This document shows, piece after piece, positions 1 through 58,751 of a stretch of DNA of 64,000 bases. Numbering within the stretch: position 1 is the first letter of the stretch; the number at the start of each line of letters is the position of its first letter. Source of the DNA: Ignavibacteria bacterium (GTDB taxonomy: Bacteria; Bacteroidota; Ignavibacteria; Kapaibacteriales; Kapaibacteriaceae); assembly GCA_013204605.1 (NCBI GenBank), contig JABMNI010000041.1:1-64000 (forward strand). The letters are read 5' to 3'. Below the pieces are notes generated by a model. It made no database searches. It had not been told where the DNA came from and worked only from the letters and a program-made list of their open reading frames with translations. The translations under genes and the position numbers were made by a program.

Positions 1-75
1 TACGAATTACGATTTACGATTTACGAATTACGAATTACGATTTACGAGTCCCGAGCGCGACGAGGGACGAGCTAA
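1..75. repeat. Heptamer array (TACGAWT)n followed by GC-rich hairpin-like GTCCCGAGCGCGACGAGGGAC
   Basis: Read directly: tacgaat tacgatt tacgatt tacgaat tacgaat tacgatt tacgag, then tcccgagcgcgacgaggga; related blocks near 14.4, 39.2, 46.0, 51.4-51.66 and 60.05 kb. Confidence 0.85.
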
Positions 76-13789: not shown

Positions 13790-14377
13790 ATGTTTACAGG
13801 ATTAATCGAAGACGTAGGCGAAGTTGTGGAAATGGAAACCGCTGCAGACAGCGCAACGTTTACCATTCGTACAATACTTACCGACATAAAAGTAGACGAT
13901 TCCATTTCCGTGAATGGGGTCTGCCTAACCGCCACCGCCGTAACAAGCGGTACGTTCCAAACCACCGCCATTAAAGAAACACTCATCAAAACCACAGCGG
14001 GCAAACTAGTAGTGGGCTCGGCAGTAAACCTAGAACGCGCCATGCGAATTGGAGATCGCCTCGGTGGCCACATGGTGTTGGGTCACACAGATTGCACTGG
14101 TACCATCACCTCCATTGTGAGCAATTCCCAGGGCAAAGAATTCTGGATCTCCTTCTCACCGGAATTCCGCAAGTGGCTCATCCCCGTCGGTTCGATATGT
14201 GTTAACGGCGTATCACTCACCATTGCCGAACTAACCGATACTACTTTCAAAGTAGCAATCATCCCCCACACACTCCAGCTCACAAACCTGGGTTTGGTTG
14301 GTGCGAATGATATGGTGAATCTGGAGTTTGACTCCATGGCAAAACACGTTGAGTCAATTATGAATTACAAATTATGA
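13790..14377 (+). CDS. ribE: Riboflavin synthase alpha chain
   Basis: MFTGLIEDVGEV; two lumazine-binding repeats SVNGVCLTATAV / CVNGVSLTIAEL. Confidence 0.97.
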   Translation: MFTGLIEDVGEVVEMETAADSATFTIRTILTDIKVDDSISVNGVCLTATAVTSGTFQTTAIKETLIKTTAGKLVVGSAVNLERAMRIGDRLGGHMVLGHTDCTGTITSIVSNSQGKEFWISFSPEFRKWLIPVGSICVNGVSLTIAELTDTTFKVAIIPHTLQLTNLGLVGANDMVNLEFDSMAKHVESIMNYKL

Positions 14378-14447
14378 ATTACGAATTGTGAGTTTCAAGT
14401 GCTCGTAATTCGTAATTTCTTATGTCGTAATTCGCAATTCGTAATTC

Positions 14448-14864
14448 CTAATTGACTAAGAAGTTCATGGTTACGACCATTCCGTCGGCAGTCCTTTTAA
14501 AATCTGAAACATCAGAAAGACTGCGGATGAGGAAGACGCCACGGCCGCCTTCGCGGAGGACGTTTTCGGGGAGGCGCGGGTCGGGGACGTCGTTCACGTT
14601 GAAGCCGGCACCGCAATCAGATACACAGATTGAAATTTGATTTTCAGATGAAAGAACTTCGATGGAGATTAGTTTTTCGCTGTCGAAATGGTGGGCGTGA
14701 ATAATGGCATTATTGACGGCTTCGGTTACGGCTACAAGGAGGTTGTGGTATTTATCGAAGGATAGATGCGCAATGGTTGAGATTGAACGTAGGAAAGGAT
14801 CGACCATGGTTATGCCTTCGGGGTTGCTCTGCATAACAAGGGTATTTGATTCGGCTACGTTCAT
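14448..14864 (-). CDS. Stand-alone HATPase (anti-sigma/RsbW-like serine kinase)
   Basis: VAVTEAVNNAIIHAH, VSDCGAGF, GGRGVFLIRSL. Confidence 0.85.
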   Translation of the reverse strand: MNVAESNTLVMQSNPEGITMVDPFLRSISTIAHLSFDKYHNLLVAVTEAVNNAIIHAHHFDSEKLISIEVLSSENQISICVSDCGAGFNVNDVPDPRLPENVLREGGRGVFLIRSLSDVSDFKRTADGMVVTMNFLVN

Positions 14865-16994: not shown

Positions 16995-18194
16995 ATGTCA
17001 CAATCACCCCGCACAATATTACTGCTAGATGCAGATTCTGCACGCGCAATTGACACCGCGCAGATTTTGCTGCAGCATAGCGTTTCGGTTTTAATGGCCA
17101 ACGATGTTGCTACGGCGCAGCAATTGGTCAGGCACCACCGTCCAGGCGTGGTTGTGCTAGATGGCGGATTTCTATCCATCAAGGACCTTCGCGAAAAACT
17201 TTTCATCCACGGTTTGAATGTTGATACACCGTTTGTAATTCTTTCGCCGGACCGCGAACCACTTGCAGAAACCAACGTTCCGTACGCAATTATTTCGCGT
17301 CCGTTAACCGATGCCGGCATTACATCCTTACTTGCCATACAGGGTCTGCCCGTTCAAGGTGAAATTCCTCCAATTGTAACTCCATCGCAAACGCAGCCTT
17401 CGCTGTTGTAAGCGTTACCACACGAATATCGCACTCCTTTAACTGACATCATTGGCCAAGCTTCATTTTTGCACGGTCATGCGTCAGATTGTCCTGCCGA
17501 AGAAATCCGAGAAGTCAGTGCCGAAATCTTATCTGCCGCACGCCGGCTGCTCCGCACTACGGATAACTTTTTGATGTACGCGCAAATTGAGACGCTATCA
17601 GATAGCCCCCTACATATCGAGCGGATGCGTCAGTGCACATCGGTCGAGCCCGCGGGCATTATGTACGACGTGGTTGTACAAAAAGCGTTGGCCCACCAAC
17701 GTCAGCAAGACGTATCTATGGCGCTCGACATCGAAGGCGTGCCTATTGCTATTATGGAGCAGCACCTCGACAAAATCACTTCGGAGTTAGTCGAAAACGC
17801 GTTGTACTTCTCGCGTCCGGGCACTCCAGTTACCGTCACCGCCACACCAAGCAAATCGGTATTCGGACTAACTTCCGGTAACGATGGCGCGTATGTTTTT
17901 TATCCCGACTCCGTTGTTTCTAGCATAGAGAACGATGACCTTGGAAATGAAATCCAAGTTTCCATCTATCCCAACCCTTCCAATCACTTGTTCACCATCG
18001 ATCTAACCGGTACAGGATTCAACCCTGCAGAAACAATCATAACCTTATTCGATGCCCAAGGAAAAAAGATTTTTGAAAGGTTTCCAACGAACATTCATAA
18101 TCAATTTAGCGTTGAAGGACTTCACAAAGGTTTGTATTTGCTTCATATCGACAATCAAACAACCAAAGCCGTTAGAAAATTGCTCGTTGACTAA
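16995..18194 (+). pseudogene. Receiver-histidine kinase hybrid interrupted by an in-frame stop and fused to a T9SS C-terminal sorting domain
   Basis: Receiver ORF 16995-17411 and downstream ORF share one frame; across the TAA at 17409-17411 the reading is QPSLL*ALPHEYRTPLTDIIGQASFLHGH (HisKA H-box), then HATPase N-box ELVENALYFSRPG...NDG, then YPNPSNHLFTIDL...GLYLLHIDNQTTKAVRKLLVD (T9SS type A CTD). Confidence 0.75.
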
Positions 18195-20704
18195 TTGAGT
18201 ACGAGCATGGGCTCGCAATGTATGCCAGTGTTTGTTGAACAAACTACATAGTAGGTTCCGTTTTGCAAGTCCGACACATCCACTACTATACTACCTTCGT
18301 TTCCAACGCTAACTGAGTTTCCATCAATCGGTAACTCTCGCACGGTGCGTCCTAGGTAGTCGACCAATTTTAATCTCACCTGCGAAACTCCTTGACCAAG
18401 CGCACTAAAATTTACGAATCGAATGCTCGCGCTATTCGAAACCGGGTTAGGTGAAACACTTAATTTGAATTGAGTGCTTAGATCTTTCTCATTTTCATCA
18501 ATTGATGTTAAAAGCGATCGAACGTAAAGCCCTTTGTCAGTTGACACCCATAGCTGTTGCCGTGCATCAAGAGCTACACCAGAGATTCTCGTATTAAATG
18601 GAGTCACGGATTTCTCTTTCCATGACAGACCATTATCTACCGATACAAGGATAGCTTTGTCTGAGCTAGCCACGATAACAGCAGGAGCATGATCAATCGA
18701 CCATGAAACATTGCTAGCTAATTCAAGGTTGTAGGATTCAGTATGTACCGATTTCCAAGTGCCACCGTTATCGGTAGATCGAAGCAAGTACCAGTTATCC
18801 CACCTGAACTGTCCCTTATTCGACCAAACATCCCAGGTAGGTCGGGATGCCCAACATAGCAAAACATTGTCGTCAACTTGCACTACGTTCTCAATCCATG
18901 TAAGGTCAGCAGGTACGTTTGATTTTGCCCACGTAACGCCATCATTATCTGTTGTCCAAATGCCACCTGGAACTGAATCCTTCAACTCACCATCCTTTGA
19001 AATAACATACCCTCTATAACCAATCACTATTCGGCCACTGCTTAAGGGTATAATCGATGAAATAGCAGGTTTAGAAGTAGCTTCTTTATAAGCATCGGGA
19101 ACGTCTGACCAGGTAGTTCCTTCATCCTCAGACATAAACAGCTTTCTAAAGCCAGCGTACAATACATTTTTTGATGGCTGGCTGGCTGCTGAAATCGTGT
19201 CCTTACGAATTGCTCGACTATTGTGCCCCTCAATCGAAAACAAACCATTACTTCTAAAGCTAAACAGGCCAAAGTCAGAAACAGCCAGTGGCGAATTTCC
19301 GATTTCGAATCTACTTCTTGATTCAGGAGTCGAGGTTAGGAGTTTTGCATATTTCATCCAGTATGGGCTACTACCATCGTCACCAATAGTCAGAACATCC
19401 CCAAGGCTCGACAATGATAGTATACTACTGTCACGGCGTCGCACTGACAAAAACTCACGTGGTCTTTGGGGCTGTCCGTCCGCTGAGTAGCACTTCCCTG
19501 TGGGCTGCAAAACACCACGTTCAAGATCTACTTTATTCAGCATCGTTGAAACACCAGTGGATAGTAACTCTTCTCCATTCCACAATAAAGAATATAGCCT
19601 AGTTCCACTCACAACAACTTTTGATTGGCCCGTTTTAACGTTAAAAAGAACGGTGTTGTTAATACTCTGAAGCCCCTCTGTGTGACTATACTTCATAACA
19701 ACCGAGTCACCCTTCACAGCAAAACCACCGGGCCCCCTGTTCACTGCACTCACACGTGTTTCAAGAGGCAAACGGTAAGCTGTAAATGAACTTCCAGTTG
19801 CTACAACTACGTACCCTTTGTCAAGCGCCATAACAACTACGGAGTCATTTATTCTTACCAAATAACTGCTGACGTTTGAGACATCGATTTTGGGGAATGG
19901 AATGGCTGCTTCACTAGGCACATCTAACTCGTTCAAGTACACCCACGAATCACTTTCACTTGCCCTACGAGCAAGGCCAACTATCAAATTCGTGTTTGAG
20001 CCAGCCAACGAAACGGCACTGCCTTTTTCTAAAAATTCAGTATAACCTACAGAAGTAGGCAAGCTGTTTGTCGCTTCCCAACGCTTTGTTTCTAGATTCA
20101 ACCAGTGCCATGATGAATCCGCTTGAGCAAACGCGAAAAATCCTTTGGTTGGGTTATAACTCGTAGATAAGAAATGCGCCGTTTGTCCCCGATACGATTT
20201 CAAAGAATCTGGAATCGGCGCGCGAACCCAAGTAACACCACGATCTGTTGAATATGAATCCAAAATTGCGAACGCATTTGGTTCGAACCCTCTGAAATTG
20301 TTACCGTCAGCTATTCCTCCACCAACGTTTTGACTATCCAAATCTTCAAAAGTCAACACCCTAGGTGAATCGGAGGGCTTCGTGAATAGGTACGTTGTAC
20401 CTCTAGTCTCAGTAGCGAATGTTCCTCCTGAAATAATCCAAGTGCCATCTGCCAACCACGCATTTTGATTGCTTGCCACTATCCTTTTGAAAGACGAGTC
20501 CGGCAAGAACTGGTGCATTTCATCTGGTGTTGATCCCTTGAACAATCCAAATCCCGTTGTCACTGTACCCCACGTAGCATGCCACCTACAATATTGCCCA
20601 TCAAATACTGAAGAATATTCTGTCCACCAATAGTCTGGCAATGGTTGCTGTGCTTGCGTAACGATGTTTAACGCAAAGAACATTGTCAAAATCAAGATTT
20701 TCAT
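18191..20704 (-). CDS. Secreted BNR/photosystem-stability-factor-like beta-propeller protein with T9SS sorting domain
   Basis: Signal peptide MKILILTMFFALNIVTQAQ; repeated TDNGGTW/SVDNGLSW; C-terminus SPNPVSNSASIRF...NGTYYVVCSTN. Confidence 0.8.
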   Translation of the reverse strand: MKILILTMFFALNIVTQAQQPLPDYWWTEYSSVFDGQYCRWHATWGTVTTGFGLFKGSTPDEMHQFLPDSSFKRIVASNQNAWLADGTWIISGGTFATETRGTTYLFTKPSDSPRVLTFEDLDSQNVGGGIADGNNFRGFEPNAFAILDSYSTDRGVTWVRAPIPDSLKSYRGQTAHFLSTSYNPTKGFFAFAQADSSWHWLNLETKRWEATNSLPTSVGYTEFLEKGSAVSLAGSNTNLIVGLARRASESDSWVYLNELDVPSEAAIPFPKIDVSNVSSYLVRINDSVVVMALDKGYVVVATGSSFTAYRLPLETRVSAVNRGPGGFAVKGDSVVMKYSHTEGLQSINNTVLFNVKTGQSKVVVSGTRLYSLLWNGEELLSTGVSTMLNKVDLERGVLQPTGKCYSADGQPQRPREFLSVRRRDSSILSLSSLGDVLTIGDDGSSPYWMKYAKLLTSTPESRSRFEIGNSPLAVSDFGLFSFRSNGLFSIEGHNSRAIRKDTISAASQPSKNVLYAGFRKLFMSEDEGTTWSDVPDAYKEATSKPAISSIIPLSSGRIVIGYRGYVISKDGELKDSVPGGIWTTDNDGVTWAKSNVPADLTWIENVVQVDDNVLLCWASRPTWDVWSNKGQFRWDNWYLLRSTDNGGTWKSVHTESYNLELASNVSWSIDHAPAVIVASSDKAILVSVDNGLSWKEKSVTPFNTRISGVALDARQQLWVSTDKGLYVRSLLTSIDENEKDLSTQFKLSVSPNPVSNSASIRFVNFSALGQGVSQVRLKLVDYLGRTVRELPIDGNSVSVGNEGSIVVDVSDLQNGTYYVVCSTNTGIHCEPMLVLN

Positions 20705-20721: not shown

Positions 20722-21443
20722 TTATGGAGTGCAGCATGGTAAGCCTCCCAGTTTGCAACATTCGTCGAAATAAGTATTGCACTCGCCAGTACAAGCCGTG
20801 TTATCGCCCTCACAAACAGTACGTTGAAAACTACAGCAATCAACTGGAGATGTTCTGCAGTATCGTCTTTCAACAAAACAATGTCGGGCACAAGAGTTAT
20901 CACATGCATAGTAACAAAACGGAGCGTCGTAATGTTTATCCAAACATTTAGGTAGGGCTAGAATATGGCAGTAAACATTGTTGTTCGTAAGATTTGTACA
21001 TGTGTTACCAATGCCGCAATTCGGAAGGGTCACACCCAGAATGTTGTTGCAACAAAGATCAGTGCCTCTTATGATTGCTTGGTAAATAGCAGTCAAGCCT
21101 TGGTTTTTCAATTCCTGGGGAACACATATCCGTTTAATCCAAGTAATCGCATTTACACCATAATTACAATCCAGCCCTCCACCGGCAGTGCATGGGTTAT
21201 CGATTAGTGTCGAACTAGAAGCATATTGCGTACACATCCAAACAGAAGCAGTATAGTTAGTCCCCGCAAAACATATCGTAAAATCCGTTTGCACACCTTC
21301 ACAATCGCAATCCAATGGCATTTGTTTTGGACACTGATCTATAGGATACTCACATTGTGCTTTCGCATCACTGGCGGTTAACCCCAACATAACCAATGAA
21401 AGGACTAGCAGAGAGAGAGAGAGAAAAAAAAAACCTTTTTCAC
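20722..21443 (-). CDS. Cys-rich secreted protein #1; start out of frame with body (putative phase-variable)
   Basis: Mature part QCEYPIDQCPKQMPLDCDC...CCKLGGLPCCTP (about 29 Cys in ~224 aa); upstream in-frame FFFLSLSLLVLSLVMLGLTASDAKAQ is a signal-peptide core encoded partly by T10 and (CT)n; GTG AAA AAG (MKK) is off by one frame. Confidence 0.65.
21410..21433. repeat. (AG)7 plus A10 tract inside the signal-peptide coding region (reads T10(CT)n on coding strand)
   Basis: agagagagagagag + aaaaaaaaaa read directly. Confidence 0.9.
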
Positions 21444-21558: not shown

Positions 21559-23973
21559 CTATCTATTCAAATACACCTTGCCAGTTACTTCACCACATGC
21601 TGTAGACAGCGTGTAACAGATCAATCCAGTAAGGTTATGAGGAAACAAAGCCTCTATTCTATCGCTTGAAGCAATTCCTTTACCTGTGTGCACTAATTCA
21701 CCGGCATACGTGTAAGCCTTAATGGAGAATGACCGATCGGTACAAGACGGGAAGAGATTTGCACCCTCCGTGTTTTGAGTTGGCTCATCCTTGATCGACG
21801 TAAAAATAGTTGGAGTGTACTTGTACAAACTTCTGTTAGTTCCGAAAAAGTATATGTCACTACCATCCACTGCAAAACCCTGGATACGGTACGGATTACT
21901 CCAATTCGACACCGCAGAGCCATTCCAATTTTTGCATCCATCAGTACTTGTAAATAGCAAGGAGTATTGGTAGAGCATTAAGGTTCGCTCCTCATTGCGA
22001 TCCACTTGTTGCACCAACAAACTTCCGGGATCCACGGGTTTGCCATTCAAGCTCCACTTCATGCGCTCAGCGCTCCACGCTGATGAATCTGCATTGAAAG
22101 AACAGAAGTAATTCACCACGGGATCAAACAAATTTGTAGATCCGCGAGTTCCCAACATGTAGGCAATCTGATTTTTCAAATGAAGATCGTACCCGGTATG
22201 TGGAAGAAAAGTCCGCACTACAACTGGGACTCTGGGCAAAATACTTACAGATCCATCATCAAACAACTCGAATACTTCCAGTGTATCCGGGATGCGATTA
22301 GTTTGGGTTCTTTGTTTATTTAACAAGCTCACTCGTAGCAGTACCTTACCGTTCTCCAACTTATCAATCCCAATTAGTCGGTATATAATTGAATCTTTAT
22401 AGTCAATCTTTGGCAACACCCATGTTGTCCCATTATCGGTAGAAATCAATGGAGCAAAAAAGCCCCATCTCGATGATGAAAAATCACTACTACTTGTTGC
22501 GGCAGCCAGCAATCCGGAATTGGTGCGAATTAATGTACCGACGTACTCTACCTTAAAGTTGTCGATACGGACCGTTTGTTCTTGCCAACTGCTCCCCGCA
22601 TCAGAACTTGTTGCATAATGATTGTCATTGGAACTTCCACTCAGGAAGAGAATATTGCCTTGTTTATTCAATACTGTGTATCCAGTTTCAAACGTAGCTA
22701 AAGTGTCCTCTTGGCAATTCACTTCAGCAACGTTACTTAGTCTCAACACAGAGCATGACACTGGAGTATCAAATTGACCAACCACCCTGGTATTTAATAC
22801 AAGAAAAGAACCTTCATCAGACTTTATTGCGCCACGCCATTCATTCTTGAAACTTCGAAATGTTCCCAGTGAATCTATCTCGAAATTTCCGATAGCCGAT
22901 TGCACATCTTGAAACCGCCACGATTCACCACCATTACGTGTATGATGAATTGCAATGTTTTGTCCATTGAATTGAGAGCCACAAAACACAACACCATCGG
23001 TGTCATTTAACATTACCACGCCAATTGCAGGAGTTGCGGGGTATAGGGACTGATAGTTTCCGTCTACTAATTTGTCTGTCAATAGTGCCTTGTTCCAAAA
23101 AGCCCCGCCATTGACGGATTTTGCGACAATCTGAAAGTAGGCATTATCACTCTCTTTCTTCCACAGATTTCCGCAAACATAAATTCTCCCAGAAGAATCC
23201 ATGGAGAGCTTTCTAAATGTATCGTCGCGCTCAACTCCATCCGCGTACGGGTAAGGAGTAGGTGGAATTAGATGATATACTTGATCCCATGTTTTTGCGC
23301 TATCTATTGACCTAAATACACGCCCTAGCGCACCACAAAGTAGTACCACGCTATCAGAAACAACTAATGCACTTGTAATGTGCATTGTGTCCAAGGGTGC
23401 AGGTCCATCAAACCACGTTTTCCCGGCGTCTCTCGAAAACATACTCTTCCCATGCTGACCAGGTACTGCAATTACGTCTCCCTTCATACTTAGCGAACCG
23501 CAAACAAAGTCAGACTTGTTTTGCACCACTCTCCATTCGTTAGTTGCACTACTCAACACAAGTATTTTGCCGTCGGTAGTGGCAACTACAATTCCATCTG
23601 GATGAGCCTGAACTCCTGAAATACTGGAGCTAACTGGTGCATTGATTGACTCCCAAATATTCGCGTTCTTAGGTCGCCTCCACACGTTTCCACCCTCACC
23701 AGCAGCCCACACGTCAACCTCGGTAACCAAGATTGACGTGATTTCGAATTGAACTGGCAAGCATTCCCATTCCCAAGTCATGCTACGATAGTCGTAGGTT
23801 CCTACGCGCCCAAACCCGCCACCAGCTATAACGTGAATTGAGTCGAGTTTTTCTGCGGCCATCAGATATCTGGCCCCATATTTACAAGGGAGTATCTCCC
23901 TCTGCACCGATTGTGCACTTAAAGTAGCGCACAGCAAAAAGTTAAATACTATTCCAACTAGAATTTTTTTCAT
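21559..23973 (-). CDS. Secreted BNR-repeat beta-propeller protein, T9SS CTD-like end
   Basis: MKKILVGIVFNFLLCATLSAQ signal; SRDAGKTWFDG, RNGGESWRF, STDNGTTWVLP; ends GEVTGKVYLNR. Confidence 0.78.
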   Translation of the reverse strand: MKKILVGIVFNFLLCATLSAQSVQREILPCKYGARYLMAAEKLDSIHVIAGGGFGRVGTYDYRSMTWEWECLPVQFEITSILVTEVDVWAAGEGGNVWRRPKNANIWESINAPVSSSISGVQAHPDGIVVATTDGKILVLSSATNEWRVVQNKSDFVCGSLSMKGDVIAVPGQHGKSMFSRDAGKTWFDGPAPLDTMHITSALVVSDSVVLLCGALGRVFRSIDSAKTWDQVYHLIPPTPYPYADGVERDDTFRKLSMDSSGRIYVCGNLWKKESDNAYFQIVAKSVNGGAFWNKALLTDKLVDGNYQSLYPATPAIGVVMLNDTDGVVFCGSQFNGQNIAIHHTRNGGESWRFQDVQSAIGNFEIDSLGTFRSFKNEWRGAIKSDEGSFLVLNTRVVGQFDTPVSCSVLRLSNVAEVNCQEDTLATFETGYTVLNKQGNILFLSGSSNDNHYATSSDAGSSWQEQTVRIDNFKVEYVGTLIRTNSGLLAAATSSSDFSSSRWGFFAPLISTDNGTTWVLPKIDYKDSIIYRLIGIDKLENGKVLLRVSLLNKQRTQTNRIPDTLEVFELFDDGSVSILPRVPVVVRTFLPHTGYDLHLKNQIAYMLGTRGSTNLFDPVVNYFCSFNADSSAWSAERMKWSLNGKPVDPGSLLVQQVDRNEERTLMLYQYSLLFTSTDGCKNWNGSAVSNWSNPYRIQGFAVDGSDIYFFGTNRSLYKYTPTIFTSIKDEPTQNTEGANLFPSCTDRSFSIKAYTYAGELVHTGKGIASSDRIEALFPHNLTGLICYTLSTACGEVTGKVYLNR

Positions 23974-23976
23974 AGC

Positions 23977-24718
23977 TCAATTCACACAGTTAACTACTTT
24001 GCAGTTGTTATAAATTGGGTCAGTACATGGTGGACCTTGCATCAGCCACGGTCCATCCCAGAATTGAACCTGACTTTGCGAACTCTTACAAAATGTGCGG
24101 ACTCTATAACAGCAACCGTTATTCAAGCAAGTGGTGAAACCTACAGACGCGTTTGCGTAAGGTGTAGGAGGCGGCAATGGGAACCAAGAGGCTTGAATCA
24201 ACATCAAATAAGTCGACCAAGAGATTGTAGGATCGTACGACTGCGTGGTGTGCCCGCCACCAGGGGTCTCCCACGTTATATAGGTTGCCATGCAATTTGC
24301 CACTTTGGAATAAATTAATGATACAGTTGAAGGACATGGACAACACTCTGGATCGGCTGTCCATTTAGCCATTTCTTTATTCGCAATAACCTTATAGATC
24401 CCGTCACGTAATCTCCCATCATTGATGGCAGCATTTATTGCATTTGCATCTGCACAGCCGGAAGGTGAAACGACTTCCATATTTACTGAATAGTCTAGCC
24501 ACTCTATTTGATTACACCTTGTCTGATAAGGCATGAAAACCTCAACAGAACACGGCGGAGAAGTTGAAATTTCCACAAATGCAGTCAAGGGATGATAGAC
24601 CCAAGGTTCAGCACATGGCGGCAACCCACCCCAATTGCAGCCTTCTTGGGCAGCAACTTGATTTGTCAGTGCACTAAGTAGAAATACCAGAGAGAGAGAG
24701 AGAGAAAATCTTTTTCAC
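23977..24718 (-). CDS. Cys-rich secreted protein #2; start out of frame with body (putative phase-variable)
   Basis: In-frame FSLSLSLVFLLSALTNQVAAQEGCNWGGLPPCAEPW...; GTG AAA AAG start is off-frame, and ATG in the body frame is followed at once by TGA. Confidence 0.65.
24689..24704. repeat. (AG)8 tract in signal-peptide coding region
   Basis: Read directly: agagagagagagagag. Confidence 0.9.
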
Positions 24719-24823
24719 ATAAACCTCACCGTTTAACTGAAAGAAAATTTAATTTCGGTAATAATACGTGATTTTTGGAAAAAGTCAAGAGATTTTTTAC
24801 ACCACTTCCAGCTTTGCAAACGC
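24711..24823 (-). promoter_or_regulatory. Duplicated promoter/leader block, copy 2, extending into the uvrD 3' end
   Basis: Near-identical to 21436-21549; includes ttacaccacttccagctttgcaaacg of the uvrD terminus. Confidence 0.85.
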
Positions 24824-27103
24824 TAGCATGAGTTGCTTGCGCTGCCCATTATTGAACATCACAGTTGCCTTGGCGCTTTGCTCTGATCCGCTCAAAGCCA
24901 TGATGGTGCCAATTCCAAACATGGGATGGTTTACCTGCTGCCCAACGGTGTAGCCGTTTACGGAGTCTTTGTTTGCCGGACGGATGGATTTTGGAATGGG
25001 GGCGTTGTAGCGCGGTGCCGAAGGTAACTGACTGTATGTTTCGCCCTCGGGCATTTGACTGAATTCAGATTGACGTTTAGGAGAGCCCCTTTCCCAAACA
25101 TTTTGGACAGCATGCGCCTCACTGTGCGGGGTGCGGTTGGAGTGATTCCCAACTACACAGGCGGGATCGATCTCGCCGATAAACATTGATGGTCGCGAAA
25201 AATTCATTTCGCCAAAACGGAACCGGCGCTCGGCATACGTGAGCACGAGGTGCTGTTTTGCGCGCGTAATTCCAACGTAAAATAACCGACGCTCTTCCTC
25301 GCGTTCATCTATGTCTTGCTCGGCCTTGGCCAGCGGGAACAGACCCTGTTCCATGCCGGCGATGACTACCATGGGGTACTCCAGACCCTTCGCGGCGTGC
25401 ATCGTCATCATACTTACTCGGTTGCCACCAGTCGCCTCATCGTCGGCATCCGATAGCAACGAAATCTGCTCGATGTATTGCGACAACGTAAGCGTCTCAT
25501 CAAACTCGTACTGCTCCTGAATGTGGCTGAGCAATCGGTCGATGTTATTCCAGCGGTCTTGGGACTCGTCGGTGTTTTGCAGACGGTACATATCGGCCAA
25601 CCCGGTTTGCGCCATAAATCTCTGAGCAACTAAGGCAGGGGGCTCGGTGTCGATATCAACTTGGTTGCGCGTTATGAGTTCAACAAAATTTTGCACCGAG
25701 GTTGCAGAGCGCTTTTGAATGCCAACTACATTCTCAGCAATTTTAAGCGTTTCGAATAATGTGGTATTTGTTTCAACGGCGTAGTCTTGCAGACGCTGCA
25801 TGGTAGTGTTGCCGATTCCCCTGCTTGGCTCGTTGATGATGCGCAAAATACTTTCGGTATCGGAAGGGTTCACCAGTACTCGCAGATACGCCAACGTGTC
25901 CTTGATTTCTTTGCGTTTGTAAAAGCTAACACCACTCACAATATGGTAGGCAACGTTGGCGCGGCGCATAGCATCCTCGATGAGTTGCGACTGTGCGTTG
26001 GTTCGGTACAAAACCGCAACATCACTTGCTTGAAGATTGCTTTCGCGCATCGCGGTCCGCACAACCTTCATAATGGTTTCGGCTTCTTCTCGATCATCTC
26101 TACAACCGAGCACGAGAATTTTTTCACCCTCGGCGTTATCGGTCCACAATTCTTTTTTCAACCGACCCGAATTATTCTTTATCACACTATCGGCTGCTGC
26201 AAGAATAGTTTTTGTACTCCGATAATTCTGCTCGAGTCGAACGGTTGTTGCCTTTGGATAATCCCTTTCGAAATCTAAAATATTCTGAATATCAGCACCG
26301 CGCCACCGATAAATACTTTGGGCGTCATCGCCCACCACACATAGGTTCCGGTACTTGCGCGCCAACAATTCCACAGCCTTATACTGCGCCTTATTTGTAT
26401 CCTGATACTCATCAACCATGATGTACCTGAAGCGCTCCTGTAACTGGTCAAGCACATCGGGTTGCTGCTGCAAAAGTCGAATCATATTCAGCAGCAAATC
26501 ATCGAAGTCCATGGCATTACTTCTCTTCAATCGCGCTTCGTATTCCTGAAAAATCTGCGCCGTCTGCTTTTCAATTACACTATTGGCTCCATTCGAATAC
26601 TGTTGCCACGATATCATAGCATTCTTCGCGGAACTTATTCTACCGCGCACTCCATTTGCCGGCAGCACTTGTTGCGAAATACCAAGCTGAACCATGATGG
26701 CTTTTACGGCCGACAACTGATCATCGGTATCGTAAATACTAAAGCTTCGGTTGTAGCCTATCAAATCTGCATATTGCCTGAGTATTCGTGCAAACACCGA
26801 ATGAAACGTGCCCGCCATTACGCCATACACCGTATCGCCCACCAGGTGTGTTATCCGCTCGCGCATTTCCTTGGCGGCCTTGTTCGTAAACGTCAACGCC
26901 AGAATACTCGACGGATGAATTCCCTGCTGAAGCAGATACGCAATTCTGAACGTCAGTACGCGCGTCTTTCCACTGCCCGCCCCCGCAATAATCAACACCG
27001 GACCCTCCGTTGTTACGGCGGCCTTGCGCTGATGTTCGTTCAATCCCTCTAGAAGTGATTCGACCGTATTTTTTGTAAGAGCAGATTGTGACAACATGTT
27101 CAA
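24797..27103 (-). CDS. UvrD/PcrA-family ATP-dependent DNA helicase
   Basis: IIAGAGSGKTRVLTFRIAYLL, ALTFTNKAAKEMRER, VDEYQDTNKAQY, TMHAAKGLEYPMV. Confidence 0.96.
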   Translation of the reverse strand: MNMLSQSALTKNTVESLLEGLNEHQRKAAVTTEGPVLIIAGAGSGKTRVLTFRIAYLLQQGIHPSSILALTFTNKAAKEMRERITHLVGDTVYGVMAGTFHSVFARILRQYADLIGYNRSFSIYDTDDQLSAVKAIMVQLGISQQVLPANGVRGRISSAKNAMISWQQYSNGANSVIEKQTAQIFQEYEARLKRSNAMDFDDLLLNMIRLLQQQPDVLDQLQERFRYIMVDEYQDTNKAQYKAVELLARKYRNLCVVGDDAQSIYRWRGADIQNILDFERDYPKATTVRLEQNYRSTKTILAAADSVIKNNSGRLKKELWTDNAEGEKILVLGCRDDREEAETIMKVVRTAMRESNLQASDVAVLYRTNAQSQLIEDAMRRANVAYHIVSGVSFYKRKEIKDTLAYLRVLVNPSDTESILRIINEPSRGIGNTTMQRLQDYAVETNTTLFETLKIAENVVGIQKRSATSVQNFVELITRNQVDIDTEPPALVAQRFMAQTGLADMYRLQNTDESQDRWNNIDRLLSHIQEQYEFDETLTLSQYIEQISLLSDADDEATGGNRVSMMTMHAAKGLEYPMVVIAGMEQGLFPLAKAEQDIDEREEERRLFYVGITRAKQHLVLTYAERRFRFGEMNFSRPSMFIGEIDPACVVGNHSNRTPHSEAHAVQNVWERGSPKRQSEFSQMPEGETYSQLPSAPRYNAPIPKSIRPANKDSVNGYTVGQQVNHPMFGIGTIMALSGSEQSAKATVMFNNGQRKQLMLAFAKLEVV

Positions 27104-37726: not shown

Positions 37727-39201
37727 GGCACTGGTTCCAACGTGTAGCCGTCCTTGCCATCCTTCATTACAAAACCATTTGACGCAATTTCATCGCGAAG
37801 TGCATCGGCATCGGCCCAACGTTTTTCAGACTTTGCAAGCCAACGTGCCGACGCAATTTTTGCAACGTGCTCTGGAATTTCAGCAAATATTTGTTCAGTG
37901 AATTCCCAAACGTTCAACACGCAATTAACTCCCCACAACACTTCAAGGTACTGCGTGGCCTGGCTGATGTCCAACTCGGCTATCATAATTTTTGGTAACG
38001 CAGAAAATAATTCCGCCAGCGCCCGCGGCATGTGAAGGTCTTCTGCCAAGGCAGTGTATACGCTTTGCTGCAGAAAAAGGGGCTCACCCAACACGCTGAT
38101 ATCAGAACCGATGTAAGATTTCAGATTTGTTTTTTTCAACAACTGCCAAATAAGTTGTTGTATGCGTATGCGAGTTTTGCCGGCAGCCACAACACCATCG
38201 AATGTGAAGTTTAACTTATTTCGGTAATGTCCGCTAATTAGCGAAAACCGCACATCACGAATGTCCAAGCCCCTTTCCAAAAGATCGGTAACTGTGTAGA
38301 AATTATTGAGCGACTTCGACATTTTTCCGCCGTCTACTTCCAAGAATTCTCCGTGGCACCAAAACGTGGCCTGCTCTACAATATGATAACCGGCGCAGCA
38401 CTGCGCTAGTTCATCCTCGTGGTGCGGGAAGCGGTTGTCTACGCCGCCGGTGTGCACATCGAACGGCAGACCCAACAGTTGTTTCGACATTGCAGAACAT
38501 TCAATATGCCAACCCGGACGGCCGGGAAGGTTCTCGCCAGCAACCGTGAAATCCCAAAACGGTTCGTTCCCTTTTCGAGCCTTCCAAAGCACAAAGTCAC
38601 TCACGGAATCGCGGTCATATTCATCTGCATCAATGCGAACTCCTTCGCGAAAGTTCTCCATATCCACGTGAAATATTCTGCCATACGTGTGAGTTTTTCG
38701 GTAAGCTGCAACATTGAAATACACCGAGCCCCCACTAACGTAACCGTACCCCGCATCAATAATTTTCTGCGTCAAATTGCGCATCTCGTCGATATAATCC
38801 GTAGCTCGCGGCATCGCTAAAAAATGTTTGCGCTCTATTCCCAATCGTGCAATATCATTCAAAAACATTTCCGAATAGTACTCCGTTAGCCTCCGCAAAT
38901 TCACCATCGAATCATCAACCTGCGCGCCTAATTCTTTTGGCCAACTTGAACTCCCCATCGCACTGTCGGCAATTGTTTTATCGTCGATATCCGTAATGTT
39001 CATCACCCAGCGCACCCCATAGCCCCCTACCACGCGCATCACGCGCTGCAGAATATCGGCAAACAAAAAGCTCCGCATGTTTCCTATGTGCGCAGTGTTG
39101 TACACCGTGGGTCCGCACGAATAAATGCTAATCTCCCCTTCGGTAAGGGGCTTCACCGGCTGCACAGATTTGGATAAGGCGTTGTATAAACTTACGATCA
39201 T
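37723..39201 (-). CDS. cysS: Cysteinyl-tRNA synthetase
   Basis: IYSCGPTVYNTAHIGNMRSFLFADIL; WHIECSAMS; KMSKSLNNF. Confidence 0.97.
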   Translation of the reverse strand: MIVSLYNALSKSVQPVKPLTEGEISIYSCGPTVYNTAHIGNMRSFLFADILQRVMRVVGGYGVRWVMNITDIDDKTIADSAMGSSSWPKELGAQVDDSMVNLRRLTEYYSEMFLNDIARLGIERKHFLAMPRATDYIDEMRNLTQKIIDAGYGYVSGGSVYFNVAAYRKTHTYGRIFHVDMENFREGVRIDADEYDRDSVSDFVLWKARKGNEPFWDFTVAGENLPGRPGWHIECSAMSKQLLGLPFDVHTGGVDNRFPHHEDELAQCCAGYHIVEQATFWCHGEFLEVDGGKMSKSLNNFYTVTDLLERGLDIRDVRFSLISGHYRNKLNFTFDGVVAAGKTRIRIQQLIWQLLKKTNLKSYIGSDISVLGEPLFLQQSVYTALAEDLHMPRALAELFSALPKIMIAELDISQATQYLEVLWGVNCVLNVWEFTEQIFAEIPEHVAKIASARWLAKSEKRWADADALRDEIASNGFVMKDGKDGYTLEPVP

Positions 39202-39279
39202 TATGAATTACGAATTATGAATTACGAATTGAGGATTAAGGATTGGCATTCTCACATCTACACATTTTCACATTGGGCT

Positions 39280-44682: not shown

Positions 44683-45150
44683 GGGCGACGCATGCGTCGC
44701 CCTTACTCGGGGATAGGTTGCGTGTAACAGCATCGTCATTAACATTTTCACATTTTTACATTTTCTCATTGGCATTCTCATATTCGCACATTTACACATT
44801 GGGCTTCCCTCCCGGCTATTTTCTCCGGGCGACGCATGCGTCGCCCCAACTTGAAGATAGTTTGCGTGAATATGTTCGAAAAGAGAACTTCGTTTTTACG
44901 TCACATTATTTATTGCAGATTACGCATTGGCATTGGCATTCTCACATTTTCACATTTTCACATTTACACATTGGGCTTCGCTCCCGGTTATTTTCTCCGG
45001 GCGACGCATGCTCGCCCCAACTTGAAGATAGTTTGCGTGAATTGGTTCGACAAAGTAACTTCGTTAACACACTACATTATAAATTGTTGATTGGCATTGG
45101 CATTGGCATTGGCATTGGCATTCTCATATTTACACATTTACACATTTGAC
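44683..45150. repeat. Intergenic composite repeat, three units: 20-bp palindrome + spacer + CACATTTN/GGCATT arrays
   Basis: GGGCGACGCATGCGTCGCCC at 44683-44702 and 44827-44846, imperfect at ~44999-45017; ttggcattggcattctcacattttcacatt blocks between them. Confidence 0.9.
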
Positions 45151-47404: not shown

Positions 47405-49722
47405 CGCACCACCTGTAATACTGTGGATACGGTATGGCTACCAGTGCTTAGTACACATATATACAAACCTGCTGGTGTTTGGTCCAATTCGATTTGTAGC
47501 CGATGAACGCCCGAAGGATAGTTTACATTCTCTATTAGCACGCGATGAACACGCCCAAGTTGGTCGCAAAGCACAAAACGCACTGACTCTGCGTTCCGGA
47601 GTGAAAACCATAACACACCTTCATCTTGTACTGGATTGGGTGCTACGAATAACGTCGGTGCTGAGGACGCTAACTCGGGAGAAACAGCCCCAAGTTCTTG
47701 GCCTGCACTGCCATTTGAAACAACAATAGGTACTCTTGGAAAAAAGTCAGTACATGGGTCAGCAATTGAGGCTCTGAAGGAACAACCATCTCGTGCTCTA
47801 AACCCATTTTTCAGTCTCACCCTATCACCGGCAATGTAACTCAGCGTCGCCCCGGACTGTACAATGTTTTCATTGGCATTTCCGCAAACCTTTCCTGCCG
47901 TTATCCTGTGAATTGCCTCAAGCAACGTTTCAGTTGATTGGCTTGTGTATGTTGCACACCGTACAAAGTCGTAGCCAACATTATTCGCGTAGACACCTAC
48001 GGCTTTCCATGCCTCCTTAATCTGCGTAACATCTCCTGAGGTCAGCTCACTATTCAGAACTAAATCATTTGCTGCTTCCAAACTCCCGATACGTGCGTCC
48101 ACGAAGTTTGACCATGGACCTAGGTAGTCTGAAAGATTCCGAAATGCAACCTTTGCTGCTTTTTCCTTTCCAATCCCGGTAACTGAATACGTGGCGGTGC
48201 TGCAACAATGGTTATTTGTTCCCGTGTGCGTACCCGACTTAGCAAGCAAGGTGAACCATCTATTTTGAACCCCGGCACGGATATGATATCCAGGGTCTTC
48301 TTCTTGAATTGTGCTCCAGTATGTTCCACAGTATGTATCGGGGTGTTGCTTCGCATTCGGGTTTACCATGTTTCGCTGGTTGGCCGTCGTCAGACATTCT
48401 TCTCCCATAATATAGTCTTCACAGTCGTACTGGTTGCTTTGATCATACAGACCCTTTGCATAGCACTCAACCATACTGCCAAAAATATCTCCAAAGGACT
48501 CGAATAGCGCGCCAAATTCACCAACAGGACCAGAAGTTGGAATATCGGCGACTTCGTAGCTGATAGCATGCGTCCATTCATGTCCAATCACGTCTAGCGC
48601 TGTGCCCCAGTCAATAAAAACGTCTGGGTACTCTTCAGGGTCAGGGACAACTATGCATTGATAGTTATTATACCAGTTAAATTGTGACCGTCCTCCTAAT
48701 AACTGCAACATGGGTGACCCATTATTATCATATCCATCATATTTTTGTTCTTTATGGAAATATTCGTAGGTCATCATGGCGGACCAATGCGCCTGTACAT
48801 ATGGATTTAGGGCATTGTCATCCGTCCATTCGAGATCAGCATGAGATATTTCGGTTTGCGTTGGATTTGTGAGGATATGAGCATCAATACTACGTGTTTG
48901 AATATATGTAGCGTTGCAATAATCTTCGAGTATATAATCACTACCAACTAGCTTCACATTTATGATTTGCTCACCGTTAAACAAGGTGTTGGCATTTGCT
49001 TTTGGATTGGTACATCCAGTACTGTTGCGAACGGCTTTCACAATTGAACCATTAATTGCATCCACAAACATATTGTATTGGCCAATTGGTCGAACGGTTG
49101 CAATTGGTATTAGATAGGCTAAAACAAGATTAGATCCCACAACATCTTGATTGTCATTAACCCGTACGAAGGCTAGTTCCGGTTCTGGATATTGCGTGAC
49201 TGTCGTGTCATTCAGTATACGTTTAACAAAGAGTTCTTCTGCCCGGTCAAGAAAGGCAGGCGTGCCGTGTGGCACAGCACGAATGGCTCGTTCAAGAGCT
49301 TGTTGCCTTGTTAGATTTGGCCAACCGGAGAGGCCTAAGCTGATAACGATCCTGCCATTAGCTTTTACGGCTCTGCCGTTCTTCTCATGGACGATAAACA
49401 TGGCATCTTGAATTGGGACGCCATCGTGATATTGCTTGTATCGGTAATGAGTATACCCATATCTGTCTTGAGTAACCCGTAACAGTCGCATCTCATCAGT
49501 TGAGGTTAGCCCAAATAGTGGTCCGTAGACCTCAAACACACGCTTCCCTGAAATGTTCACGTTGTCTTTGAAACGTACCCATCCGCTAGGGTGTACGATA
49601 TTGCATATCTCTGTTACATTCGGGTCAAGCTGAGCATGAAGCGACCTTGGTACAGAAAAAACAACCAGTGGAACTATTAAGAGAATACACCGGCTGAACG
49701 AAACCGAAATTGCTGTACTCAT
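47401..49722 (-). CDS. Thermolysin-like (M4) metalloprotease with T9SS sorting domain
   Basis: DVIGHEWTHAISYE zincin motif; GEFGALFESFGDIFG; APNPVQDEGVLWFSL...TPAGLYICVLSTG. Confidence 0.92.
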   Translation of the reverse strand: MSTAISVSFSRCILLIVPLVVFSVPRSLHAQLDPNVTEICNIVHPSGWVRFKDNVNISGKRVFEVYGPLFGLTSTDEMRLLRVTQDRYGYTHYRYKQYHDGVPIQDAMFIVHEKNGRAVKANGRIVISLGLSGWPNLTRQQALERAIRAVPHGTPAFLDRAEELFVKRILNDTTVTQYPEPELAFVRVNDNQDVVGSNLVLAYLIPIATVRPIGQYNMFVDAINGSIVKAVRNSTGCTNPKANANTLFNGEQIINVKLVGSDYILEDYCNATYIQTRSIDAHILTNPTQTEISHADLEWTDDNALNPYVQAHWSAMMTYEYFHKEQKYDGYDNNGSPMLQLLGGRSQFNWYNNYQCIVVPDPEEYPDVFIDWGTALDVIGHEWTHAISYEVADIPTSGPVGEFGALFESFGDIFGSMVECYAKGLYDQSNQYDCEDYIMGEECLTTANQRNMVNPNAKQHPDTYCGTYWSTIQEEDPGYHIRAGVQNRWFTLLAKSGTHTGTNNHCCSTATYSVTGIGKEKAAKVAFRNLSDYLGPWSNFVDARIGSLEAANDLVLNSELTSGDVTQIKEAWKAVGVYANNVGYDFVRCATYTSQSTETLLEAIHRITAGKVCGNANENIVQSGATLSYIAGDRVRLKNGFRARDGCSFRASIADPCTDFFPRVPIVVSNGSAGQELGAVSPELASSAPTLFVAPNPVQDEGVLWFSLRNAESVRFVLCDQLGRVHRVLIENVNYPSGVHRLQIELDQTPAGLYICVLSTGSHTVSTVLQVVR

Positions 49723-51097
49723 CGCATGGATTCCCGAATTTGGTCAATCTCACGTTTGAGGGAGTTATTCTGCTCAGATAATCTGATAACGTAGAGCGTC
49801 AGTTGTTCAATTTTTTCTAAAAAAGTTGCTTGTAGCTTGCCAAGCAGAACCCCATGTTCTGCTACTTCTGACTGATTTGGAATTCCAGGAAGGTGTTTGT
49901 TCTTATATATATACTCTTTCAATTCATCTATTGCCATAAGGTTATAGTCTTCGCTAAAAACGTAATCGGGCCACCAACCTCCAGTTCGAACAGCAATTTC
50001 TTTTGTCAAGATCACACCGTCTACATGCAACTTGTGAGAAAAATTTGCCGTTAGTTGATCGTCGTTATAATTTTCACCTATAATAACATCACCCTTTACT
50101 TGCAGTCCGCCCCCTGCTAAATTCGAATGTGCATCACCATACCCTACTACCAATGTCCCTGCATTCGTTAGCTTAATCAACTGGGAGTTATCCGAGTTAG
50201 TGATCCTCAAGGCATTTGTCGCACCTGTATAATCTTGCGTCTTGATAAAGAGTCTTGTCCCAGTTTCCGGCGTACCACTACCGAATGCGTAGATTCCGTT
50301 GCCGTTGGAATCGTAGTATAAACTCAATCCATTAAACGTTCCAGATGGCTCTTGAAAATCCACTGCTCCGTCAGCGCTTCCAGTACCACCTAATCCCAAT
50401 CGCACCTTACCGTTGCTGGCAAAATCGAGTACTGAACTGTATCCATTGTTAATTCGCTTCTGATTGTTCGAACCGTCAACGTAGACATTGAACCCGAAAA
50501 AGTCGTTGAACGAACCAACATGAAACGTCAGCCGTGGACCTATTTGCAACAACTCCTTTGGATCTACACTCGCAATTCCAACGTGTCCAATGTCGATGAT
50601 CCGCATTCTTTCCGCATCTGCGCCGCTATTCGGCGATGTCGTCGCAAACCGTATCATCGAACCAGGATCGCGAGTGGTAAGAATCAGGTTGGCGGTTGTA
50701 GAATCAGAGACACCCACGGCAATTGAAAAATCATTGAGAGTTTCGAGTGTAGTATTTTGAAACCCACCACGATACAAACTTAAAGTTGTATGAAAATCAC
50801 CAGCACATATCGGACTCAGTGCTGGACCATTCGAGCTGAACCTTAGAGATGGCTGACCACTCTCCAATAGATGCAGAGTAAATGGCTGCGTATAGTTATT
50901 TGCGCATGCACAGCCATTCGCATTGTCTGTAATCCTTACCCGCTGGCCAATTCTATCCCCATTTATTACACCCGGATTACAGTTTTGTGACCTAGCTACC
51001 CCATGAATACAAAACAGGCTTATTATAAGAACCGCAACTATGTTATCACGTCTGGATAGGTAACTACGTCGAGAGAGAGAGAGAGAGATTTAATCAT
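49719..51097 (-). CDS. Secreted tail-fibre/cell-wall-anchor-like protein; start out of frame with body (putative phase-variable)
   Basis: Body frame extends upstream to ...RRDNIVAVLIISLFCIHGVARSQNCNPGVINGDRIGQ...; ATG ATT AAA TCT at 51097 is off-frame because of (GA)9 length; C-term KNKHLPGIPNQSEVAEHGVLLGKLQATFLEKIEQLTLY. Confidence 0.65.
51071..51088. repeat. (GA)9 tract near the translation start
   Basis: Read directly. Confidence 0.92.
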
Positions 51098-51583: not shown

Positions 51584-51660
51584 TTTTTTCGTCCCTCGTA
51601 GCGCTCCGGACTCGCAATTCGTAACTCGCAATTCGTAATTCCTAATTCGTAATTCGAAAT
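51584..51660. repeat. Intergenic heptamer array (TAATTCG)n with TCGTCCCTCG.. block
   Basis: cgtccctcgtagcgctccggactcgcaattcgtaactcgcaattcgtaattcctaattcgtaattcg. Confidence 0.8.
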
Positions 51661-51665
51661 TGTTT

Positions 51666-57631: not shown

Positions 57632-58189
57632 TTGCACGTGGCAAATCCATTCAGTTCTGCATCGGTTAAAACATTTTCGGTCCTTTTTGCACTTGGAGGC
57701 ACCATTTGGTTGGGTGCAACCATTGCAAGAACCGCAATTGGTTTTGATGTTTTTGAAGGGGGCTCTCTGATTTTCAAGGAGTGGCAACCTGTAGAAGTAA
57801 GACTGCATGTTATCTGGTTGTTCTCCATGTTGGGCGCACTTACTGGATGGTCGTTCCTATTGGCCACAATTGGCGCTGTTGGCAACCTGTTTTTATTGCG
57901 TCAGCATACCAAACAACACGGTTGGATAATGATGGCCGCCATCATGTTTTTGCTCATGTTACCCGTCCAAATGTACCTATCGTGGCAAGATTTCCATCTG
58001 TGGCGATTGTTCGATCCGTATACCGGAATGCCCCTTGCCAAGACCGATGAAATATTCAGTGTCTTTTTAATGCGCTACACAAACGTGCTTATTAACGTCG
58101 CAACCGGCATGCTTGTCCTGATGGGCGTAACGCTGGTAATGGTGTTAGCGGCACGACCGCTAAGCAAATGTGAGAATGTGGAAATTTGA
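57632..58189 (+). CDS. Hypothetical integral membrane protein
   Basis: Several hydrophobic segments. Confidence 0.6.
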   Translation: MHVANPFSSASVKTFSVLFALGGTIWLGATIARTAIGFDVFEGGSLIFKEWQPVEVRLHVIWLFSMLGALTGWSFLLATIGAVGNLFLLRQHTKQHGWIMMAAIMFLLMLPVQMYLSWQDFHLWRLFDPYTGMPLAKTDEIFSVFLMRYTNVLINVATGMLVLMGVTLVMVLAARPLSKCENVEI

Positions 58190-58440
58190 GAATGACAATG
58201 TGGAAATGCAAATGTGAGAATGTGGAAATTTGAGAATGACAATGTGGAAATGCAAATGTGTAAATGCAAATGTGTAATTGAGTAGATATGTAAATGAGTA
58301 GTTATGTAAATGAGTAGATATGAGAATGCCAACAAAACGTTTCAAAGCTCCTATCCGCAAGTAGGGGCGACGCATGCGTCGCCCGAGTTGTCCCCAAGAA
58401 AACCCAATGTGTAAATGTGGAAATGTGGAAATGTGAGAAA
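58165..58440. repeat. Intergenic octamer/hexamer array with 20-bp palindrome at 58365-58384
   Basis: aatgtgagaatgtggaaatttgagaatgacaatgtgg... and GGGCGACGCATGCGTCGCCC. Confidence 0.9.
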
Positions 58441-58751
58441 TGAAACCCGATAAAATTCTTGAAGAGTTATACGCGTTGGCAAAGAGCCTTGGATATAGTG
58501 TTCATCGCGAGCCGGGAGCCTTTAAGGGTGGGGCATGCATTGTGCGCGAACAGAAACACATCATCATAAATAAGTCGATGCCGCTCGAAGCATCGTCAGT
58601 TATACTTGCACGCGCGCTGTGCCAACTCGACGTTGAAGGAATGTTCATCAAGCCCGCCGTGCGCGAGATAATTGATCGCGAAAGAAAATGGGCATTGTTG
58701 AACCCAGACGTTATGTTCGAACTCGATGGCGCCAAAGAGGTTCAAGAATGA
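58440..58751 (+). CDS. Hypothetical protein, ATGA-overlapped with era
   Basis: MKPDKILEELYALAKSLGYSVHREPGAFKGGACIVREQKHIIINKSM. Confidence 0.75.
   Translation: MKPDKILEELYALAKSLGYSVHREPGAFKGGACIVREQKHIIINKSMPLEASSVILARALCQLDVEGMFIKPAVREIIDRERKWALLNPDVMFELDGAKEVQE

What the first reader, a model, noticed from the sequence alone, without database searches (positions are those of the whole stretch)
24689..24720. Second phase-variable-like Cys-rich gene with the same architecture and also out of frame
Body frame: TGA AAA AGA TTT TCT CTC TCT CTC TCT CTG GTA TTT CTA CTT AGT GCA CTG ACA AAT CAA GTT GCT GCC CAA GAA GGC TGC = FSLSLSLVFLLSALTNQVAAQ|EGC. The GTG AAA AAG start is off-frame, and the ATG that is in the body frame is followed directly by TGA. 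Gain of one GA unit (or loss of two) would give MKKIFSLSLSL... in frame. Two paralogous loci with the same defect at the same repeat argue for a switch rather than two random mutations.
Basis: partly seen in the sequence, partly recalled or inferred. Interest (0 to 1): 0.85.

Follow-up and report, generated by a model that had tools for sequence, protein, structure and literature searches.

The report
Repeat-tract on/off switch for secreted protein
A run of CT repeats inside the export-signal part of a gene for a cysteine-rich secreted protein is currently the wrong length to be read through, and the same arrangement at different lengths in related genes and species shows that it is very probably a genetic on/off switch of the kind known from Helicobacter, found here in a lineage where no such switch turned up in my literature search.

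Summary
A (CT)8 tract (24689-24705, minus strand) sits in the signal-peptide codons of a 16-Cys secreted protein. The GTG start gives a 14-residue peptide; the body frame is open for 237 codons but has no start. The whole 2.69 Mb genome has only three (CT)>=6 tracts. All are in this window, at the 5' ends of secreted ORFs, and out of frame, in two different phases. Two paralogues elsewhere in the genome carry an octanucleotide repeat at the same place. In a complete genome of another genus the only three (CT)>=6 tracts lie at the start of its three homologues: n=11 (frame open), n=13 and n=18 (closed). In another family, an orthologous pair differs by one CT unit (one open, one closed) with dN/dS 0.2. 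This supports slipped-strand ON/OFF phase variation, mechanistically like Helicobacter oipA/hopZ but in unrelated proteins. The switched gene heads a conserved two-gene cassette (Cys-rich protein plus ~800-aa propeller-like secreted protein). One correction: A and B share the 5' switch module (92% DNA) but not the protein body, and are not in the same off-phase. Switching itself was not observed; no reads were available.

The parts
24689..24705 (-). (CT)8 tract (17 nt) in the signal-peptide codons of gene B: the proposed switch, currently out of frame
   Evidence: one of only three (CT)>=6 tracts in the genome
24674..24718 (-). short ORF now read from GTG: VKKIFSLSLSGIST, ends at TAG (24676-24674)
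24718..24720 (-). ATG directly followed by TGA, in the body frame; overlaps the GTG start two bases on
24721..24800 (-). shared 5' module: TTGACT-16-TATTAT promoter-like site (24788-24761) and GGTGAGG Shine-Dalgarno-like sequence; 92% identical to the 5' region of gene A
   Evidence: the promoter scan as a whole is not above chance (9 found, 9.5 expected)
23977..24688 (-). body of gene B: rest of signal peptide (cleavage likely at VAAQ|EGC) and 16-Cys mature protein; no Pfam, NCBIfam, PHROG or PDB match
21559..23973 (-). partner gene of B: 804-aa secreted BNR/beta-propeller-like protein, starts 3 nt after B's stop (TGA GCT ATG)
21410..21424 (-). (CT)7 tract of gene A, preceded by a T run; start GTG 21443, out of frame (phase 2)
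20722..21409 (-). body of gene A: 29-Cys secreted protein of a different family from B
18191..20704 (-). partner gene of A: secreted protein with Sortilin/BNR repeats and type IX secretion C-terminal domain
51071..51088 (-). third CT tract (18 nt), gene C; start ATG 51097, out of frame (phase 2)
49719..51070 (-). body of gene C: secreted, weak tail-fibre-like match (PHROG 18345); a distant homologue in G040 also has a 38-nt CT tract at its start

Best explanation
It is a simple-sequence contingency locus. The promoter and start codon are constant. A CT tract in the signal-peptide codons gains or loses units by slipped-strand mispairing during replication, and each change moves the frame. In one phase of three the start codon reads through into the secreted Cys-rich protein; in the other two translation stops after about 10-30 codons. 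(CT)n reads as Leu-Ser repeats in all three frames and never as a stop, so any in-frame length still makes a plausible export signal. Because B's stop lies 3 nt before the start of its ~800-aa partner gene, the partner's translation is probably switched too. The product is probably a surface or secreted structure whose stochastic exposure diversifies the population. Shown: tract position, frames, length and unit differences among relatives, purifying selection on a closed copy. Inferred: slippage as the mutation, actual switching in cells, coupling to the partner, surface role.
For: (1) Only three (CT)>=6 tracts in 2.69 Mb, all at 5' ends of secreted ORFs on the sense strand. (2) Paralogues of B on C39 have (CTGCGCCT)n or (CTGTGCCT)n, 8-nt units, at the same place, and these are the only such arrays in the genome. 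(3) G005, complete genome of another genus: its only three (CT)>=6 tracts are the starts of its three B homologues, n=11 open (278 aa from ATG), n=13 and n=18 closed. (4) Orthologues G036 (27 nt, open) and G027 (29 nt, closed) differ by one unit; body dN/dS 0.20 over 384 codons. (5) All three phases occur; A and B share the 5' module yet are in different phases. (6) About one third of classifiable loci are open (4 of 13), as free drift predicts. (7) Body ORFs stay intact and keep their cysteines.
Against: No length heterogeneity within one population has been seen. MutS1 is present in G000 and G005, which should repress dinucleotide slippage, and 7-9 units is a modest length. All three window copies are closed. 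The C39b octamer copy is in frame but has ATA where its paralogue has ATG. Homologues in G019, G004 and G120 have no repeat.
Confidence: 0.85

Rival explanations
1. Decayed genes: the tracts are neutral remnants and A, B and C are permanently off pseudogenes.
For: All three window copies are out of frame; C39b has lost its ATG.
Against: Bodies are fully open with conserved cysteines; a closed orthologue in another gene family is under purifying selection, dN/dS 0.20; open alleles exist in G005 and G036; tract position is conserved over genera.
Confidence: 0.06
2. The body is translated anyway: start at a non-ATG codon, TGA read as an amino acid after the ATG, or frameshifting / transcriptional slippage on the tract.
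For: In B the ATG-TGA lies in the body frame; A has a T run next to the CT tract.
Against: TGA ends 13 of 31 ORFs of 300 aa or more in the window; in A the body is in the third frame, not the ATG frame; C and C39a need other changes; no ATG, GTG or TTG lies in the body frame between the last stop and the tract in A or B; relatives have an ordinary ATG with Shine-Dalgarno-like sequence in the open allele.
Confidence: 0.05
3. The CT run is only a by-product of Leu-Ser-rich signal peptides, without selection for switching.
For: (CT)n codes for Leu-Ser; signal peptides favour such residues.
Against: Only three tracts exist per genome in G000 and G005, and four of these six fall in one homologous family; an octamer replaces the dinucleotide in paralogues; most copies are out of frame, which protein-level selection alone would not allow.
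Confidence: 0.04

Closest known systems
Helicobacter pylori oipA (hopH), hopZ, babA, sabA: CT-dinucleotide phase variation in the 5' (signal-peptide) coding region (PMC10564699, PMC3960876)
   Same: Same unit (CT), same place (5' coding region; for oipA the signal peptide), same frame logic, several loci per genome, surface or secreted products
   Different: Unrelated proteins and a distant lineage; two-gene cassette with a propeller-like partner; some paralogues use an octamer instead; MutS1 is present here; no switching data
Neisseria opa genes, (CTCTT)n in the signal-peptide codons (from general knowledge)
   Same: Repeat inside signal-peptide codons switches an outer-surface protein family ON/OFF
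   Different: Pentamer unit, unrelated beta-barrel proteins, many more copies
Homologous Cys-rich genes without repeat in G019, G004, G120
   Same: Same protein family and same two-gene cassette
   Different: Ordinary start and signal peptide, no repeat, so presumably not switched in this way

Membership tests
Simple-sequence-repeat (slipped-strand) phase-variable gene | Tandem repeat with a unit not divisible by three inside the 5' coding region or promoter | tested here: met
   (CT)8 at 24689-24705 in signal-peptide codons
Simple-sequence-repeat (slipped-strand) phase-variable gene | Otherwise intact gene that one unit change brings into frame | tested here: met
   Body open for 237 codons; phase table
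Simple-sequence-repeat (slipped-strand) phase-variable gene | Repeat number varies between related alleles, with open and closed states | tested here: met
   n=11, 13, 18 in G005 with one open; G036 open versus G027 closed, one unit apart
Simple-sequence-repeat (slipped-strand) phase-variable gene | Repeat number varies within one strain or population at high frequency, reversibly | not testable with these tools
Simple-sequence-repeat (slipped-strand) phase-variable gene | Expression follows repeat number | not testable with these tools
   Needs reporter or proteomics
Helicobacter Hop outer-membrane protein family | Sequence homology to Hop proteins / outer-membrane beta-barrel domain | tested here: not met
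   No Pfam or NCBIfam match for A, B or C; no PDB sequence match for family B
Type IX secretion cargo (partner of A) | C-terminal Por_Secre_tail domain | tested here: met
   18191-20704: PF18962 27.1 bits, cut-off 27; the NCBIfam version is below its cut-off
Type IX secretion cargo (gene B and its partner) | C-terminal Por_Secre_tail domain | tested here: not met
   No such match in B or in 21559-23973

The most novel reading that the evidence does not exclude
A lineage-wide set of switch modules: a promoter-start-repeat segment is joined to unrelated secreted-protein bodies, and selection for switching is strong enough that the repeat unit itself has been replaced (CT by an octamer, or the reverse) in paralogues, while the same position stays repetitive over genera. 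This would be an independent counterpart of the Helicobacter/Neisseria adhesin switches, controlling a two-gene Cys-rich plus propeller-like surface system.
Probability: 0.45. Interest if true: 0.68.

Novelty: new member of a known kind. Interest (0 to 1): 0.56.

Why it matters
Repeat-driven phase variation is known mostly from host-adapted pathogens. Here it marks, in a lineage for which I found no work on such switches, an uncharacterised secreted Cys-rich protein family with a conserved partner, which tells where this lineage needs surface diversity (phage, predator, host or partner contacts). It also makes two general questions testable from reads alone: how fast short dinucleotide tracts switch where MutS is present, and why paralogues swap repeat units.

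Tried and rejected
TGA read as an amino acid: rejected (stop use; A's body is not in the ATG frame). A and B as full paralogues: rejected for the bodies, accepted for the 5' module. Naming the organism and finding named homologues with genome contigs: two scans found no relative, so the organism is given only as a lineage whose secreted proteins carry type IX sorting domains. Structure prediction of A and B from single sequences: mean pLDDT 33-37, not used. Rfam on the window: nothing. Promoter scan: the two matching sites lie at the same place before A and B, but the scan as a whole is not above chance. In the order-wide scan most tracts outside secreted ORFs are intergenic or, in G093/G094, in a repeated element without a long ORF. 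A G14 tract before the A-family homologue in G017 has no clear start codon in any frame, so it was not counted.

Full report
What is there. On the minus strand, gene B begins ...GGTGAGGTTTATGTGAAAAAGATTTT(CT)8GGTATTTC.... The likely start is GTG at 24718, 5 nt after GAGG. It yields VKKIFSLSLSGIST and stops at TAG 24676. The frame that codes for the body (FSLSLSLVFLLSALTNQVAAQ|EGCNWGG...) is open to 23977, but its only ATG ahead of the tract (24720) is followed at once by TGA, and no ATG, GTG or TTG lies in frame between that TGA and the tract. One unit more or two fewer would join start and body.

More than chance. Runs of (CT)6 are expected 0.01 times per window by dinucleotide shuffling; three places have them, and there are no others in the whole 2.69 Mb assembly. 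All three (A 21410, B 24689, C 51071) are on the sense strand at the start of ORFs whose body begins with the rest of a signal peptide, and all are out of frame: A and C in phase 2, B in phase 1.

Relation of A and B. About 110 bp of 5' DNA, from the promoter-like site to the tract, is 92% identical, yet the bodies are unrelated. So a switch module is shared, not a whole gene. Since the module is shared but the phases differ, the two tracts have changed length independently.

Paralogues with another repeat. Family B has two more members in the genome, on contig C39 (36-39% identity). Their signal-peptide codons carry octamer arrays, TCTGCGCC x4.8 and TCTGTGCC x3.6, and these are the only such arrays in the genome. 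The first is out of frame with its ATG. The second is in frame, but ATA stands where its paralogue has ATG; whether ATA works as a start there is unknown. Eight, like two, is not divisible by three, and both arrays read without stops in every frame. In the order-wide scan the octamer is found in only two further genomes: once in frame in the signal peptide of an unrelated secreted protein (G038) and once between genes (G102).

Relatives. G005 is a complete one-contig genome of another genus. It has exactly three (CT)>=6 tracts, each directly after ATGAA of one of its three family-B genes: 22 nt (open, 278 aa), 26 nt and 36 nt (both closed). The first two genes are recent duplicates (99% identical in the aligned mature part) that differ by two units. 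Among 127 genomes of the order, 29 (CT)>=7 tracts were found in 18 genomes. Eleven have a CT-sense ORF of at least 100 aa directly downstream and, as far as inspected by eye, the N-terminal sequence looks like an export signal. They include the orthologues G036 (27 nt, open) and G027 (29 nt, closed); their 384-codon bodies differ with dN/dS 0.20, so the closed copy is not a decayed gene. For scale, 8.3% of random strand-specific positions in the window meet the stricter criterion (ORF of at least 100 aa downstream, under 40 open codons upstream) that 8 of the 29 tracts meet in CT sense and 3 in GA sense. The order-wide enrichment is thus moderate; the decisive evidence is the complete coincidence in G000 and G005.

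Cassette. In all four cassettes of this genome, and at the homologues in G005 (three), G019, G004 (two) and G120, the Cys-rich gene is followed on the same strand by a gene for a secreted protein of about 780-840 aa. Most partners of family B are related to each other by BLAST, some only weakly; the partner of A shows no BLAST match to them but also has BNR repeats. B ends TGA-GCT-ATG into its partner, so a frame-closed B probably also lowers the partner's translation (inference). Homologues in G019, G004 and G120 have the cassette without the repeat, so switching is an added property, not part of the protein's basic design.

Mechanism. Slipped-strand change of tract length with frame-dependent read-through is the simplest account. 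Open loci are 4 of 13 that can be classified (open: the 22-nt copy in G005, G036, G033, G038; closed: A, B, C, C39a, two in G005, G027, G113, G051), close to the third expected for free drift. A caution: MutS1 is present in G000 and G005, so dinucleotide slippage may be slower than in Helicobacter; octamer loops are generally thought to escape mismatch repair (general knowledge), which might explain the unit swap (inference).

Known counterparts. CT repeats in the signal-peptide region of H. pylori oipA, and at the 5' end of hopZ, babA and sabA, act in this way (PMC10564699, PMC3960876). The present genes work like these but are not members of that protein family: no match in Pfam or NCBIfam (A, B, C), PHROGs (A and B) or PDB sequences (family B). 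Literature searches combining phase variation with Kapabacteria, or with Flavobacterium and repeat terms, found no paper; only open-licence papers were searched, and the lineage name was my guess.

Noticed in passing
window 51071-51088 and 49719-51070: A third CT tract of the same kind before a secreted, weakly tail-fibre-like protein; a distant homologue in G040 also has a 38-nt CT tract at its start.
   Followed up: partly
L021 1888-1925 and 6522-6550 (contig C39): Octanucleotide arrays in the signal-peptide codons of two paralogues; the second has ATA at the place of ATG.
   Followed up: yes
L115 (G017:C98), just before 24571-25185: A G14 run in the signal-peptide region of an A-family homologue, without a clear start codon in any frame; perhaps another switch type.
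   Followed up: partly
window 1-47, 14356-14453, 39200-39238, 44742-44972, 51612-51661, 58164-58442: Many arrays of 7- and 8-nt units (ATTACGA, CATTTTCA, AATGTGGA and the like), mostly between genes.
   Followed up: no
L112 (G011:C28:58063-58625): An A-family homologue split over two frames away from any simple repeat: a plain frameshift or sequencing error.
   Followed up: no
G093 and G094 (L078, L089, L093, L095, L097, L094, L096): CT tracts of 14-38 nt inside a dispersed repeated element without a long ORF.
   Followed up: no
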